Origin: Pseudobdellovibrionaceae bacterium
Lineage (GTDB): Bacteria; Bdellovibrionota; Bdellovibrionia; Bdellovibrionales; UBA1609
NCBI GenBank assembly: GCA_018663505.1
Contig: JABJQG010000006.1
Location: 1 to 46,933 of the forward strand
Length of the DNA: 46,933 bases
Direction: 5' to 3'
The position numbers and the translations under genes were made by a program. Shown one piece after another: positions 9,543 to 41,950 of this stretch; the first letter of the stretch is position 1, and every line of letters begins with the position of its first letter. The notes under the pieces are model-generated. The model was not told where the DNA came from. It saw only the letters and a program-made list of their open reading frames with translations, and did no database searches.

Positions 9543-10190
9543 ATGATTTTTGAAGACTGGGGCTTTATTAATTATCAAGAGGCTTTGACTCGACAACTTG
9601 CCCTTGTGGAAAAAGTAAATTCTGGTGAACAGTCAAATACGGTGGTTTTTTGTTCGCACCCACCCATTGTAACTCTGGGAAGAGGAGCCACGAAAAGTGA
9701 CTTGCAAGGTTGGCAAGGTGATATAGCTGAAGTTCAGCGTGGTGGCCGGGCCACATACCATGGACCAGGACAGCTGGTTATATATTTAATTTTGGATTTA
9801 AAAGTCGCTAAAGCTATTCCTTCGCAGGACATAGGTGCTTATTTGCGATTTTTGGAGGGTACAGTAATAAACGCCTTTTCGCACTTGGATATTGAAGCTT
9901 ATCAAAAAGATGAAGAAATTTTTGATGAAAGTGGGAAAAAGCTTTTAATGACAGGGGTTTGGGTAAATGGGTATAAGGTCGCATCAATGGGTATAGCCTT
10001 AAAAAACTGGGTATCTTACCATGGAATTGCTATAAATATTTACAAAGATGAGTTGGCCTTTAGTGGTATAAACCCATGTGGTTTTGCCATGTCACCAATG
10101 AGGAGTCTTGAAGATCTTTTTTCTACCCAGATCTCCAGAAATGATCTAATAAATGGAGTGAGGGATTCTTTGCTAGAAGTTGATTTTTAA
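9543..10190 (+). CDS. lipB: Octanoyl-[acyl-carrier-protein]:protein octanoyltransferase
   Basis: LipB moves octanoate from acyl-carrier protein to lipoyl domains, producing the substrate for LipA. The signature RGGRATYHGPGQLVIYLI is clear. The catalytic pair is present: Lys145 in NGYKVASMG and Cys179 in GINPCGF. At 215 residues the length is normal. The ATG begins one base after the E3 stop and has no ribosome-binding site of its own, so translation is probably coupled. With lipA, E2 and E3 it forms a lipoylation operon. The next gene, TonB-like, begins close behind. Confidence 0.95.
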   Translation: MIFEDWGFINYQEALTRQLALVEKVNSGEQSNTVVFCSHPPIVTLGRGATKSDLQGWQGDIAEVQRGGRATYHGPGQLVIYLILDLKVAKAIPSQDIGAYLRFLEGTVINAFSHLDIEAYQKDEEIFDESGKKLLMTGVWVNGYKVASMGIALKNWVSYHGIAINIYKDELAFSGINPCGFAMSPMRSLEDLFSTQISRNDLINGVRDSLLEVDF

Positions 10191-10215
10191 GGGGCTAGGC
10201 ATTAGAGTAAGGACT

Positions 10216-10830
10216 ATGTTTTTTTTAAATAGATTCAGCATAACCCAACTATCTGTAGTGGTGTCGACATCACTACATATAATGGTGCTATTGGGATTAC
10301 ATGTTTCATCATATATTGGTAAGCAAGTGGTCCCTATGGGGGTAAATATTGTCTACTCAGCGGCAGAAATTACTTACACGGAGCCTCCAGAAACTAAAAG
10401 TAATTCCTCCCATGTTATTGTGTCCTCTGTAAAAAAAATAAAACAGCAAAATAAAATTAATGAAACTAAAGAGAAATTGGGCACTGGCCACAGGATGGTT
10501 CAAAGTCAGAAATTTGGTTCAGCAGCAGGAGCTCGACTTAACTTAGAACAGCAGTACTTATTCAAATTGAGAGAACATATTGTAAAGCAAATTGATTACC
10601 CGAGAGCTTCTCGTAAGCTAAGGCAAACGGGTCAGGTGATCGTAAAACTAGATATTGATCGATCTGGAAGAATATTAGATGCAAGTATAGAAAAAAAATG
10701 TCCCTTTGTGAGGCTTAATCAAGCGGCCTTGACTCTTGTGAGAGGCATTGGGGAGTTTGCTCCATTTCCTAAAAGTATTCAGCTAGCAAGAATTTCAGTA
10801 CTTATTCCTGTGAGTTACAGCCTTAAGTAG
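10216..10830 (+). CDS. TonB-like protein (energy transducer C-terminal domain)
   Basis: The protein is 204 residues from ATG 10216 (AAGGA close upstream; an in-frame TTG at 10180 would overlap lipB). A hydrophobic anchor (VVVSTSLHIMVLLGLHVSSY) is followed by a polar linker and a TonB/TolA-type C-terminal fold: KQIDYPRASRKLRQTGQVIV, LDIDRSGRILDASIEK, and a final strand with IPVSY. TonB proteins couple the proton gradient to outer-membrane receptors. The linker lacks the usual Pro-Glu/Pro-Lys repeats. Why it follows lipB is unclear; cotranscription may be coincidental. A 64-bp-arm palindrome begins 25 bases after its stop. Confidence 0.8.
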   Translation: MFFLNRFSITQLSVVVSTSLHIMVLLGLHVSSYIGKQVVPMGVNIVYSAAEITYTEPPETKSNSSHVIVSSVKKIKQQNKINETKEKLGTGHRMVQSQKFGSAAGARLNLEQQYLFKLREHIVKQIDYPRASRKLRQTGQVIVKLDIDRSGRILDASIEKKCPFVRLNQAALTLVRGIGEFAPFPKSIQLARISVLIPVSYSLK

Positions 10831-10854
10831 ATTCGTCTGTCCAAGTAGTGTGTT

Positions 10855-11037
10855 GCCACTAAGCTCCTAAATTTAGAATAGAAATCTTACAATTTCACAA
10901 AGCCCCTTCTTATAGGGCACAGCTCCTGCTTTGCTGGCATCACCCTTCGGGTGAGCGCTTCCAGCTTGCCAGAGCCCTATAAGAAGGGGCTTTGTGAAAT
11001 TGTAAGATTTCTATTCTAAATTTAGGAGCTTAGTGGC
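10855..11037. repeat. Giant perfect palindrome with 64-bp arms (element 1)
   Basis: Arm 10855-10918 is the exact reverse complement of 10974-11037. The 55-base centre (10919-10973) contains CACCC-TTCG-GGTG and further partial pairings (GCTGG with CCAGC). As RNA this would fold into one very long stem with a TTCG-capped tip. It lies 25 bases after the stop of the TonB-like gene. Its overall design matches elements 2-4, but the core sequence differs. No U-tract follows, so it is not an ordinary terminator. Confidence 0.85.
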
Positions 11038-11158
11038 GGTATAATTGAGGATCATAGAGAAAGAATCTTACTTGTTTCTGAGGGAGGGTATTCAGGCCAG
11101 GTGTATTTACCTTAAGTTTCTATAGAATTTACAAAGCCCTTATGGCCAGCGAGGATTT

Positions 11159-12211
11159 GTGATACCCTTGGCCTCAGTTATGAAAGAAAAAATCGCATTT
11201 TACAGTTTAACATTATCTGACTTGGAGTCTGTCTTAGAAGGCTTGGGGCATAAAAAGTTTCGAGCAAGGCAGTTGTTTCAGTGGGTGTATTTACATAAAG
11301 AAACTAACCCTGAGAATATGTTAAATTTATCTAAATTATTTAGAGAAGAGATCCCTTCGCTTTTTCATTTTGAGCTTCCTGAGATTATACTTCATAAAAA
11401 GAGTAAGGACGGAACTCAAAAATTTCTATTTAGAGTGGGAGAGAAGCTCTCGGTAGAAACTGTGCTAATTCCATCAGGAGAGAGAAACACCCTCTGTGTA
11501 AGCTCAGAAGTAGGCTGTAATATGGCCTGTAATTTTTGTTACACTGGAACTCAAAAATTAAAGAGAAGACTTACTGCTGATGAAATAGTAGGGCAGTTCC
11601 TTAGAGTGTCTCACTTACTACCAGAGAACGTTAAGATATCGAATATTGTGTATATGGGAATGGGGGAGCCTCTTGATAATACGGATGCTGTTTTAAAGTC
11701 TATTGATATTTTGCATGCTCCTTTGGGAATAAATTTATCGCTTAAAAAAATCACAGTATCAACTTCTGGTATTGTTAGTAAAATTCCATTATTAACTCAA
11801 TCAGGGGTTCGTTTGGCTGTGAGCTTAAATGCTTCAGAAGATGAAACTCGAAATAAAATAATGCCCATCAATTTAAAATGGAACATTAAGACTTTGCTGG
11901 AGGCCTGTCGCCAGCATGCCATTGGTACAAAAGATAAGGTGACTCTGGAGTACGTTTTGCTTAAGGGCATTAACGACTCTTTAGAAGACGCACGGCGAGT
12001 GTATGAAATTACCAAAAATGTGCCTTCAAAAATTAATATAATTCCTTTTAATGAACACCCCGGGGCGCCCTATAAAAAGCCCTTGGAGAAGGTGGTTGAT
12101 GCTTTTCAGAATGAACTTATATATTTAGGGGCCCAGACTTTAAGACGAAGAACCATGGGTGACGATATTCTAGCAGCCTGTGGACAGCTGAATTCCGAGG
12201 CGACTCTCTAG
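11159..12211 (+). CDS. rlmN: Dual-specificity 23S rRNA/tRNA adenine-C2 methyltransferase RlmN
   Basis: This 350-residue radical-SAM enzyme methylates C2 of an adenosine in 23S rRNA and in some tRNAs. The cluster motif is CNMACNFC (Cys120, 124, 127). The two mechanistic cysteines are also present: Cys113 (seven before the cluster, as in E. coli) and Cys341 in ILAACGQL. Other RlmN landmarks are KKFRARQLFQWVY, YMGMGEPLDN, VSTSGIV and SLNASEDETRNKIMP. The start is GTG at 11159, with GAGGA just upstream; an in-frame ATG seven codons later has no such site. Element 2 begins 10 bases after the stop. Confidence 0.96.
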   Translation: MIPLASVMKEKIAFYSLTLSDLESVLEGLGHKKFRARQLFQWVYLHKETNPENMLNLSKLFREEIPSLFHFELPEIILHKKSKDGTQKFLFRVGEKLSVETVLIPSGERNTLCVSSEVGCNMACNFCYTGTQKLKRRLTADEIVGQFLRVSHLLPENVKISNIVYMGMGEPLDNTDAVLKSIDILHAPLGINLSLKKITVSTSGIVSKIPLLTQSGVRLAVSLNASEDETRNKIMPINLKWNIKTLLEACRQHAIGTKDKVTLEYVLLKGINDSLEDARRVYEITKNVPSKINIIPFNEHPGAPYKKPLEKVVDAFQNELIYLGAQTLRRRTMGDDILAACGQLNSEATL

Positions 12212-12220
12212 GCAGAGAAC

Positions 12221-12382
12221 ATAATGCCAATTCCATTAAAGGTCCCTCTTTTAAATTTGGATAATTTAACACCCAAAAGGCTCAAACATGCGGTTCTCGC
12301 CCTTCAGGCTGCGATCCGAACTCGCTTTTGGCGCAAAATTATCCAAATTTAAAAGAGGGACCTTTAATGGAATTGGTATTAT
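12221..12382 (+). repeat. Constant-core, unique-arm palindromic element (element 2)
   Basis: Arms 12221-12267 and 12336-12382 are 47 bp each with one mismatch (a G-T wobble in RNA). Between them lies a core that contains the shared block 12279-12327: GGCTCAAACATG, then CGGTTCTCGCCCTTC, then GCTGCGATCCGAACTCGCTT. The core can fold (GTTC with GAAC, GCC with GGC at the tip). It starts 10 bases after the rlmN stop, in rlmN orientation. The arms do not match those of elements 3 and 4. Confidence 0.88.
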
Positions 12383-16718: not shown

Positions 16719-16871
16719 TACTAATTTTAGTACACAACTCCCTTTTAAATTTTAAATATTTAGCACCAAATGGCTCAGACATGCGGTTCTCGCCCTTCGG
16801 GCTGCGATCCGAACTCGCTTGTGGCGCTAAATATTTAAAATTAAAAAGGGAGTTGTGTACTGAAATTAGTA
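16719..16871 (+). repeat. Constant-core, unique-arm palindromic element (element 3)
   Basis: Arms 16719-16764 and 16826-16871 are 46 bp with two mismatches. The core holds block 16772-16820, identical to element 2 except CTCAGACATG for CTCAAACATG and a TTCG instead of TTCA tip. It begins 23 bases after the metallophosphoesterase stop and has the same orientation as that gene. Arm sequences are unrelated to those of elements 2 and 4. Confidence 0.88.
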
Positions 16872-26260: not shown

Positions 26261-26416
26261 ATGATATCAAAAAGGTTTTATATTCAAATCCTTGCTGTAA
26301 CAGGTTTGTTAGTTTTGTTAATGTTTTATCAAAATTGTAACAAAACTGCTGGTGCCCAATTGAACCAGGGACAAAGGTACGGACACACTTCTGTGTCTAA
26401 GGCGCGTTACAAGTAA
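26261..26416 (+). CDS. Small lipoprotein-like ORF cut short by a hairpin
   Basis: A 51-codon frame starts MISKRFYIQILAVTGLLVLL and continues MFYQNC: a signal peptide with a YQNC lipobox (Cys26), of the style I associate with Bdellovibrionales lipoproteins. After NKTAGAQLNQ the frame runs into the hairpin at 26370-26453, which supplies its last 15 codons and its stop. It is either a tiny lipoprotein or the 5' end of a longer gene broken by the hairpin. Confidence 0.45.
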   Translation: MISKRFYIQILAVTGLLVLLMFYQNCNKTAGAQLNQGQRYGHTSVSKARYK

Positions 26417-26453
26417 CGCATCTTAGACACAGAAGTGTGTCCGTACCTTTGTC
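26370..26453. repeat. Hairpin with 32-bp perfect arms
   Basis: Arm 26370-26401 is the exact reverse complement of 26422-26453. The 20-base centre can also pair (GCGTTA with TAACGC, CAAG loop). No T-tract follows. The arm itself contains the near-palindrome GGACACACTTCTGTGTC. Confidence 0.85.
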
Positions 26454-31216: not shown

Positions 31217-32095
31217 TTGATTAGACAGGTTCAAAAGGTTCTTGGGTTAACAATGGTCATTTTCACTTTTATCATTGTAGGATCTTTATATTTACAAAAT
31301 AAAGGCTACCTATCTTTTCATAAATTGTTACTTCTTAATTTTGGTGAAACTATATCCAGCGGAAACAATGTACTTTGTGCTGAAATCATCATGCAGCTAA
31401 AAGATTCTAATAAAGAAGAAAAAAACAAACATCTAGATTATTATATAAAAGTGTTAAAGGTTGGAGTTGGTCCATTTTTTCATAGTAAGAAGAAACATCC
31501 CATAAATGATTGGTTGATTATGTTAGTCAATTTATCACCAGAAAAAACAGATAAAAAAAAACAGAAAATAGACCCTGATAAATTAGTGAAATTGGATGCA
31601 GAAAGATGCTTTGTAACGACAATGAACTATATGGGGGATACATTATACCCACATATGCACTGGGTACTTCGTATTAGAAACCTTCCTCACTATAAATATA
31701 TGACAAAAGATTTTTTTATAGACTACTTTGAAAACCATAAAAATGGCGGTGCTTTATTTCGCCAATATATGGGACAAAGACAAGAGTATCCTGAATTTTT
31801 TAGTCGTATTTTCTATAAAAAAATAGGTCCTAAATCAGCAGAATTATTTTCAAACTACCTTAGCTCACAACTTCATTCAAAAAAGGATATTACTCAACTG
31901 ATTGAGTTTAATGTTCTATTTGATTATTATTTTAAATCTGAAGAAGAGCATTATTATCCGACAGAAATTGTAAATCTTTTTGAAAAAAGTAAAAATGATC
32001 TGTATTCGAACCTTCCATTGGCTATGCAACTTAAGCGTTTTAAAAAAGTAAATTTCCCCAAAAAATTAGGAAGATTTTTAAAGTTTACGAAATAG
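31217..32095 (+). CDS. Membrane-anchored protein, unknown function
   Basis: The 292-residue protein starts at a TTG (AAGG immediately upstream; ATG 31253 is the alternative). It has one N-terminal membrane segment (VLGLTMVIFTFIIVGSLYL) and then a basic, helical, soluble region facing the periplasm. There are Tyr/Phe/Lys/His-rich stretches (PHMHWVLRIRNLPHYKYM) and no domain I recognise. It is monocistronic, with an AT-rich 258-base upstream region, and ends at a strong double terminator shared with the convergent ATPase gene. Its codon usage and Lys-richness suggest an accessory gene. Confidence 0.65.
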   Translation: MIRQVQKVLGLTMVIFTFIIVGSLYLQNKGYLSFHKLLLLNFGETISSGNNVLCAEIIMQLKDSNKEEKNKHLDYYIKVLKVGVGPFFHSKKKHPINDWLIMLVNLSPEKTDKKKQKIDPDKLVKLDAERCFVTTMNYMGDTLYPHMHWVLRIRNLPHYKYMTKDFFIDYFENHKNGGALFRQYMGQRQEYPEFFSRIFYKKIGPKSAELFSNYLSSQLHSKKDITQLIEFNVLFDYYFKSEEEHYYPTEIVNLFEKSKNDLYSNLPLAMQLKRFKKVNFPKKLGRFLKFTK

Positions 32096-32109: not shown

Positions 32110-32197
32110 AAAAAAAGGTGCCAGCTCACTTATGGGACTCACTGCGTCCCATAAGTGAGCTGGCACCTTTTTTTTTAAGTGAGCTGGCACCTTTTTT
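32110..32197. terminator. Bidirectional terminator with duplicated right arm
   Basis: A 29-bp perfect stem (32110-32138 with 32146-32174) begins with a run of A and ends with a run of T, with loop TCACTGC, so it can terminate from both sides. A second copy of its right half, AAGTGAGCTGGCACCTTTTTT (21 bases), follows directly at 32177-32197. It separates convergent genes (stops at 32095 and 32250). Confidence 0.85.
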
Positions 32198-40872: not shown

Positions 40873-41006
40873 ATACCCACGCGATAGCTTTTAGTGAATC
40901 TACCACTCTATCAGAAAAAAAGAATTGTTCAACGGGTAATTTTTACTTTTAAAGCTGAGAAGGTGCTAGCGAATTGTGGAAAAAAATGTTACGGGTTTTT
41001 TTATTT

Positions 41007-41161
41007 CATCAGATCTATTAAAAGATACCTTTTTGTGAGTTTGGATATTTAGCGCAAAAAGCGAGTTCGGATCGCAGCCCAAAGGGCGAGAACCGCATGT
41101 CTGAGCATTTTTGTGTTGAATATCCAAACTCACAAAAAGGTATCTTTTAATAGATCTGATG
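41007..41161 (-). repeat. Constant-core, unique-arm palindromic element (element 4)
   Basis: Arms 41007-41049 and 41119-41161 are 43 bp and perfectly complementary. On the minus strand the core contains the same block as elements 2 and 3 (41059-41107), with CTCAGACATG and a TTTG tip. It starts 10 bases after the stop of the lipoprotein gene at 41171, on the same (minus) strand. Hence all three cores point along the upstream gene. Confidence 0.88.
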
Positions 41162-41170
41162 GAATGAAAA

Positions 41171-41821
41171 CTACTGTGCTTTACTTTCCCAACCCGCAAC
41201 ACGACTGTACTCAAAATAAATAATTCTATTTTCTTTTTTATAGCCCTCAGGTGTGGAAGTGACTTTTAAATAATTCCAGCGTTCGTTGCCATAGATTTCG
41301 TTTCCAGCAACTTCAATATAGTCAGGTTCGCCCCAGCTTTCACGAACAGCTTTTTTATTCATACCAATTGAAATATCATTGGACTCAATAAGTCGACTGA
41401 CTTCATCACTAAACTTAGAGCTATTGGTTTTAATTCCTCGATTATTCACCCATCGCTTACGGGCAACAGTATTTGGCTGTTTTAAAAAACGAATGCGTTC
41501 TATATCATTTTTAAAATAGGGTTTTAATTGATAATACTGTTTTTTTTCTTCAGAAGTTGAAAGTGATTTCTCCAGTTTATTGAGCCTCAATTTATAACTT
41601 AACCTTAATTGCTCTGTCTCAGTAAGAGGTCTAGATAAGGGAATGGCGAGTTCTTGTTTAGCAAGGTTGACATCCTGGCTTCGTTTATTTGAGTAGTATT
41701 GAGTTGCAGAACTTGGCTGTGAGCTATATTCGTTAGAATAACCACTTTCATGACTTCTTTGCATAAGACTGCAGCCCATTAAAATATAAGTTGAGGCAGC
41801 AACAAAAATCCATTTTTGCAT
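41171..41821 (-). CDS. Lipoprotein with BamE/SmpA-like C-terminal region
   Basis: From ATG 41821 (AAGGAG seven bases upstream) the protein has 216 residues. The leader QKWIFVAASTYILMGC gives the lipobox LMGC. A Ser/Tyr/Gln-rich linker follows, then a helical region, then ISIGMNKKAVRESWGEPDYI with NEIYGNERWNYL, which resembles the BamE/SmpA fold (small outer-membrane assembly lipoproteins) in its GMNKxxVxxxWGxPD pattern. BamE role itself is not certain. A longer frame from 41863 has no ribosome-binding site. Element 4 follows immediately; the SNF2 gene is next on the strand. Confidence 0.8.
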   Translation of the reverse strand: MQKWIFVAASTYILMGCSLMQRSHESGYSNEYSSQPSSATQYYSNKRSQDVNLAKQELAIPLSRPLTETEQLRLSYKLRLNKLEKSLSTSEEKKQYYQLKPYFKNDIERIRFLKQPNTVARKRWVNNRGIKTNSSKFSDEVSRLIESNDISIGMNKKAVRESWGEPDYIEVAGNEIYGNERWNYLKVTSTPEGYKKENRIIYFEYSRVAGWESKAQ

Positions 41822-41950
41822 AGGTGTTCTCCTTAGTACCTTGTTATATGAATATATCGACAAAAAAGCCGAGATTCTAAATATATATGAGGTCTTGTAG
41901 GTGCAATTCTAGGCTTTTATCTATAGTCAAAAGTGCATGTGTAATTTAAA

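What the first reader, a model, noticed from the sequence alone, without database searches (positions are those of the whole stretch)
10855..11037. Palindrome with 64-bp perfect arms after the TonB-like gene
Two 64-bp arms with no mismatch is extraordinary, because such DNA is unstable in most bacteria. Perfect identity implies recent formation or active gene conversion. The 55-bp centre is unlike elements 2-4 but again ends in a TTCG-capped stem, and it again starts just after a stop codon (25 bases), suggesting a second core class of the same system.
Basis: seen in the sequence. Interest (0 to 1): 0.75.

Follow-up and report, generated by a model that had tools for sequence, protein, structure and literature searches.

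The report
Mobile palindromes with ever-changing arms
The 64-bp perfect palindrome is one copy of a widespread, apparently undescribed family of small mobile DNA hairpins in Bdellovibrio-like bacteria, whose folded centre is conserved while its two arms differ at every site yet stay almost perfectly complementary to each other, which points to one arm being copied from the other.

Summary
Observation confirmed: arms 10855-10918 and 10974-11037, 64 bp, no mismatch, 55-nt centre, starting 24 nt after the stop of a TonB_C gene. It is not unique and not an assembly fold-back. Its centre (class A) occurs in 7 elements of this genome, 9 or more in another genus, and, by covariance model, in 26 of 141 genomes of the order. 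The centre of window elements 2-4 (class B) occurs in 26 near-identical copies here; its signature CTCARACATGCG...CCGAACTCG is in 21 of 141 genomes. Both centres fold with compensatory changes. In this genome class B centres are 96% identical between copies, but arms are only 30-47% identical between copies while 97-99.6% complementary within a copy. Two empty sites (inside hypF; between two genes in a sister species) indicate that the whole palindrome, arms included, is inserted; arms are not copied from the target or from elsewhere in the genome. Arm mismatches show no G-U bias, favouring DNA arm-to-arm copying over RNA-structure selection. No TSD, no GTAG/CGTC tag, no co-occurrence with RAYT transposases. 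No SbcD passes the cut-off in 47 family genomes. A new, "inside-out" variant of prokaryotic palindromic mobile repeats; its mobiliser is unknown.

The parts
10855..10918 (+). left arm of the class A element, unique sequence, 64 bp
   Evidence: arms hit only themselves in the genome
10974..11037 (+). right arm, exact reverse complement of the left arm
10915..10977 (+). class A core GGGC...GCCC: branched hairpin with side hairpins AGC-TCCT-GCT and GC-TTCCA-GC and a hairpin tip TCACCC-TTC-GGGTGA
   Evidence: seven elements in this genome, 9 or more in G018
10180..10830 (+). upstream TonB_C-domain gene, stop 24 nt before the element
11159..12211 (+). downstream gene, radical SAM with RlmN_N domain
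12221..12382 (+). class B element (core copy at 12287-12324), 9 nt after the stop of the rlmN-like gene
16719..16871 (+). class B element, core 16780-16817
40998..41170 (-). class B element, core on the minus strand 41062-41099, directly after the stop of the gene 41171-41863 (-)

Best explanation
The feature is a non-autonomous mobile palindromic element of a family spread through the Bdellovibrionales. The conserved part is the folded centre: a structured core with conserved unpaired loops and covarying stems. The arms are part of the mobile unit but free to change. A whole hairpin (arm-core-arm, about 95-190 bp) is inserted without a detectable target duplication, mostly just behind stop codons and sometimes in frame inside genes (supported by two empty sites). 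Within each element one arm is kept as a copy of the other, most likely by intra-hairpin template switching during replication (quasipalindrome correction): a mutation in one arm is erased or written into the other, so arms drift apart between copies yet stay near-perfect within a copy (pattern shown; enzymology inferred). The core escapes this homogenisation because an unidentified mobility factor must recognise its asymmetric loops (inferred). The apparent lack of SbcCD makes such long hairpins tolerable (SbcD absence computed; causal role inferred).
For: Copy number and spread. Same core, different arms: class A; class B: core identity 0.962; arms 10-50 nt from the core 0.30-0.47 between copies, 0.967-0.996 complementary within. 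Arms found nowhere else in the genome but weakly related to each other, so inherited with the element (23 of 276 pairs above the 99.9% null, reversed control 0). Whole-palindrome insertion: HypF has 61-67 residues where three solved HypFs have 3-7, the difference matching the 163-nt palindrome; G047 has 19+153 nt where its congener G048 has overlapping stop codons. Core covariation. No wobble bias in arm mismatches. No TSD. Co-oriented upstream gene 18 of 23. SbcD. Template switching as maker and keeper of perfect stems: PMC8794818.
Against: No mobilising gene was found, and no insertion was caught between close strains. The G-U test rests on only 17 and 24 mismatches. The depth of arm divergence against 96% identical cores is not fully explained by drift: it needs either many rounds of transposition with selection only on the core, or an arm-specific mutagenic step. 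Arms are nearly as conserved as the core in G013 (0.74-0.78 near the core against 0.84), so hypervariable arms are not universal. HypF and G047/G048 are only two empty sites; the HypF comparison uses distant homologs (about 35% identity) and G048 could have lost a spacer.
Confidence: 0.6

Rival explanations
1. Only the core is mobile; on insertion it primes a snap-back copy of the flank, so each pair of arms is an inverted duplication of the target.
For: Arms are unique to each site and near-perfect.
Against: In hypF the native gap of 3-9 residues cannot supply a 59-nt arm. At the G047/G048 site there is no intergenic DNA to copy. Arms are weakly homologous between copies and clearly so in G013. 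Arm ends stop at gene ends instead of running into them.
Confidence: 0.08
2. The elements are old functional RNA hairpins of 3' UTRs (processing, stability or termination) kept by selection for RNA pairing.
For: Location 0-55 nt behind stop codons on the sense strand for most class B copies; compensatory changes in the core.
Against: Arm mismatches show no G-U preference (3 G-T against 4 A-C of 17; 5 against 10 of 24). No T-run terminator at the window copy. In-frame copies inside hypF and a shikimate-kinase-like ORF. G046 and G019, same genus as G048, have none at the model threshold.
Confidence: 0.15
3. REP-like repeats mobilised by RAYT / Y1 (IS200/IS605-type) transposases.
For: Hairpins with imperfect stems are typical substrates; a C-rich tag at the 5' foot in genus g20 (14 of 18 C at -1); Y1 genes exist in the window's genome.
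Against: G013, G054, G055, G001, G043 and G045 carry many elements and no Y1_Tnp match; G053 has 24 Y1 matches and no class B elements. No GTAG/CGTC tag (3 of 53).
Confidence: 0.06
4. Assembly fold-back artefact.
For: Contig ends fall in some of these elements.
Against: Copies with imperfect, different arms and the same core in many genera, class A model matches in one-contig genomes such as G065; an insert that keeps a reading frame open.
Confidence: 0.01

Closest known systems
Rickettsia palindromic elements (RPE)
   Same: Palindromes of about 150 bp dispersed in a genome, inserted between genes and in frame inside genes (PMC10969869).
   Different: RPEs are described with a conserved peptide (PMC10969869) and as losing repeat identity with time (PMC6649704); here only the centre is conserved and arms stay near-perfect but differ from copy to copy. 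Another phylum.
REP / BIME (GTAG- and CGTC-tagged) repeats with RAYT transposases
   Same: Dispersed hairpins, often downstream of coding regions, possible ssDNA substrates (PMC3733652).
   Different: Here the elements are much longer, have no tag and no link with RAYT genes.
MITEs
   Same: Small non-autonomous dispersed inverted repeats.
   Different: MITEs have conserved terminal inverted repeats and usually a target duplication; here termini vary, the centre is conserved, and no target duplication is seen.
Coding palindromes of nematomorph mitochondrial genes
   Same: Long perfect arms that seem actively kept identical; template switching proposed (PMC6649704).
   Different: There the arms encode conserved protein regions; this family has a conserved folded core and is dispersed mostly between genes.

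Membership tests
REP/BIME (RAYT-mobilised) | GTAG or CGTC tag at one foot of the hairpin | tested here: not met
   3 of 53 elements have either tetranucleotide near an end
REP/BIME (RAYT-mobilised) | Associated Y1/RAYT transposase in the genome | tested here: not met
   Six element-rich genomes have no PF01797 match; most are incomplete assemblies
REP/BIME (RAYT-mobilised) | 20-40 bp size | tested here: not met
   Elements of 95-187 bp
Rickettsia palindromic elements | In-frame insertion in protein genes | tested here: met
   hypF; shikimate-kinase-like ORF of G013; rare, most copies are intergenic
Rickettsia palindromic elements | Sequence conserved along the whole element, conserved encoded peptide | tested here: not met
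   Arms 30-47% identical between copies in this genome; peptide conservation as such not tested
Rickettsia palindromic elements | Sequence homology to a known RPE family | not tested
   No RPE sequences were compared
MITE | Conserved terminal inverted repeats | tested here: not met
   Between-copy identity falls to background outward; termini differ
MITE | Target site duplication | tested here: not met
   0-2 nt matches only
MITE | Derived from an autonomous transposon | not testable with these tools
   No partner gene identified
Known structured RNA (Rfam) | Covariance-model match above gathering score | tested here: not met
   Only sub-threshold microRNA-hairpin scores at the elements
Intrinsic terminator | GC stem followed by a T run | tested here: not met
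   None found at 10700-11300; other copies not scanned

The most novel reading that the evidence does not exclude
An inside-out transposable element: the recognised unit is the folded centre, and the arms are disposable, being re-made as copies of each other at or after each mobilisation, possibly by an error-prone hairpin-primed step, so that every new copy carries different perfect ends.
Probability: 0.3. Interest if true: 0.85.

Novelty: new variant of a known kind. Interest (0 to 1): 0.68.

Why it matters
Mobile elements are normally recognised by conserved ends; here the centre is conserved and the ends vary, so recognition and integration must work differently. The family also gives dozens of natural replicates per genome for measuring how perfect inverted repeats are kept perfect in bacteria, in a group that seems to lack the palindrome nuclease SbcCD. 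It supplies in-frame protein insertions and breaks assemblies, which matters for genome annotation of Bdellovibrio-like bacteria.

Tried and rejected
Rfam: no family. Snap-back duplication of the target: my first model, rejected by hypF and the G047/G048 empty site. Arms copied from another locus: rejected, all 31 arms hit only their own element at meaningful E-values. RAYT mobilisation: rejected. Plasmids (class A core): no match. Viral contigs: two pattern hits without arms, chance. Bradyrhizobium pattern hits: no arms, chance. Intergenic empty sites of G048 against G019 were too diverged for exact borders, though gene order is kept and the lengths fit a whole insertion at one of them (L137). 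Homology between class A and class B cores: only a loose GCTC..AAGCG likeness, left open. Orthologous elements within genera g14 and g20: no shared site seen among the fetched copies, so age by shared sites could not be set.

Full report
OBSERVATION. The palindrome is real and exact: arms 10855-10918 and 10974-11037, 64 nt, no mismatch, 55 nt between. Shuffled windows reach a score of 12 against 64; the strand folds at -86.9 kcal/mol, z -19.7. It starts 24 nt behind the stop of a TonB_C gene and lies upstream of an rlmN-like gene.

COPIES OF THE CENTRE. Searching the window's own genome (G000) with the element gives only the centre at other places: hits on C8, C29, C57, C23, C2, C49 and C72. 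The C8 and C57 hits are contig ends that carry matching arms and so look like the two halves of one element; the count is then seven elements. Each has its own arms of 53-69 bp. Nine copies lie in G018, another genus of the same family; its contigs equal in length those of the record titled Bdellovibrionales bacterium HKST-UBA12. A covariance model built from 12 of these matches 26 of 141 genomes of the order, 20 of 66 genera, including the one-contig genomes G065, G067 and G082, some with weak scores. Sample matches in other genera and families again carry unique arms of 25-45 bp around a core with a GCTCCTGC-like loop.

THE OTHER CORE. Elements 2-4 of the window share class B, found 26 times in G000 with at most two mismatches to the pattern. 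Its signature CTCARACAWRCG-N-CCGAACTCG is in 21 of 141 genomes (one hit among the backward-pattern controls) and the inner stem between the two halves differs from genus to genus. No Rfam family matches, and searches for the signature in the held papers found no description; absence from that library is weak evidence of novelty.

CORE STRUCTURE. Class B: outer arms, a conserved unpaired hinge (CTCARACAWG / AACTCG), then an imperfect inner stem with fixed mismatches. Class A: two side hairpins and a tip with a TNC loop. RNAalifold and pair counts show compensatory changes beyond both controls. These alignments include the innermost arm columns, which add to the covariation; within the cores proper, class A pairs 31/67, 33/65, 34/64, 37/49, 38/48 and 17/26, and class B pairs 31/54, 36/47 and 37/46 change on both sides. 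Wobble pairs are rare in these cores.

ARMS. In 24 class B copies of G000 the core is 96.2% identical between copies; arms 10-50 nt from the core are 30-47% identical between copies and 96.7-99.6% complementary within a copy. A residual relation between arms exists (23 of 276 pairs above the 99.9% null, reversed control none), so arms seem to descend from a common arm. None of 31 arms occurs elsewhere in the genome at a meaningful E-value. In G013, with short 27-nt arms, arms are nearly as conserved as the core, so strong arm divergence marks certain lineages (G000, G048/G047, class A). Mismatches inside arms show no wobble excess on the sense strand, unlike pairing kept by selection on RNA; arm-to-arm copying at the DNA level is the simpler reading. 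Template switching is a documented maker and keeper of perfect stems (PMC8794818), and a similar argument was made for nematomorph mitochondrial palindromes (PMC6649704).

INSERTION. L080 carries an element in frame inside hypF. Three solved HypFs have 3-7 residues where this protein has 61-67 between the aligned segments, and the G004 homolog also lacks the insert; the excess matches the whole 163-nt palindrome. 163 is not a multiple of three, so the exact insert must differ from the palindrome by a base or two. In G013 an element lies in frame in a shikimate-kinase-like ORF. In G047 an element of 153 nt plus 19 nt separates two convergent genes whose stop codons overlap in its congener G048. 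Both hypF and G047 indicate that arms arrive with the core. No target duplication is seen. Elements also nest, one within the core of another (L083, L084, L094; L171).

PLACE. In G000 the class B copy usually follows a co-oriented gene (18 of 23, p = 0.01), typically 0-55 nt behind its stop. This fits insertion tolerated at gene ends, or a sense-strand RNA effect. No terminator signature was found at the window copy.

MOBILISER AND TOLERANCE. Y1/RAYT genes do not track the elements (against 32). No SbcD passes the model cut-off in any of 47 family genomes, with 13 of 14 control genomes ringing and 8 over the cut-off; since element-free genomes lack it too, this is permissive at most.

VERDICT. 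A new variant of palindromic mobile repeats in which the centre is conserved and the ends vary. Shown: the family, its spread, core covariation, arm statistics, and whole-unit insertion at two sites. Inferred: template switching, an unidentified core-recognising factor, and the role of missing SbcCD. Not shown: movement in real time and the source of the rapid arm change.

Noticed in passing
window 26370-26453: Near-perfect palindrome with 41-nt arms and a 2-nt centre; not one of the two core classes.
   Followed up: no
window 32110-32174: Palindrome with 32-nt arms and almost no centre, behind an ORF ending at 32095.
   Followed up: no
L080 (G000:C20), 281-2830: hypF reading frame left open through an inserted palindromic element, giving a protein about 55 residues longer than homologs.
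   Followed up: yes
L136 and L142 (G048): Tandem arrays of class B left halves with a conserved linker (TGCTTGCAACAAAGCTACTGCCTGAGGAACCC) and different arm segments; only the last unit has a matching right arm.
   Followed up: partly
L083, L084, L094 (G000) and L171 (G124): Nested elements: one palindrome sits inside the core of another.
   Followed up: partly
L135 (G048), right flank as printed: A further palindrome with another centre (GCGCGCAGTTCTCGCCGTAGGCGATCTGTTTGAGC) and arms like the class B arm consensus (TTAAATAATTCTCTAAATG), suggesting more core classes.
   Followed up: no
L144, L145, L146 (G048): A 125-155 bp repeat of another kind shared by three loci (85-93% identical).
   Followed up: no
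G048 and G047 elements, base just 5' of the left arm: C at -1 in 14 of 18 elements and T at +1 in 11 of 18: a possible asymmetric end tag in this genus only.
   Followed up: partly
all 47 genomes of the family: No SbcD above the model cut-off in any genome of the family.
   Followed up: partly
L195 (G013:C11): Shikimate-kinase-like ORF with an in-frame palindromic element and, further on, tandem KGFCLANFPNVLNFHNQN repeats.
   Followed up: partly
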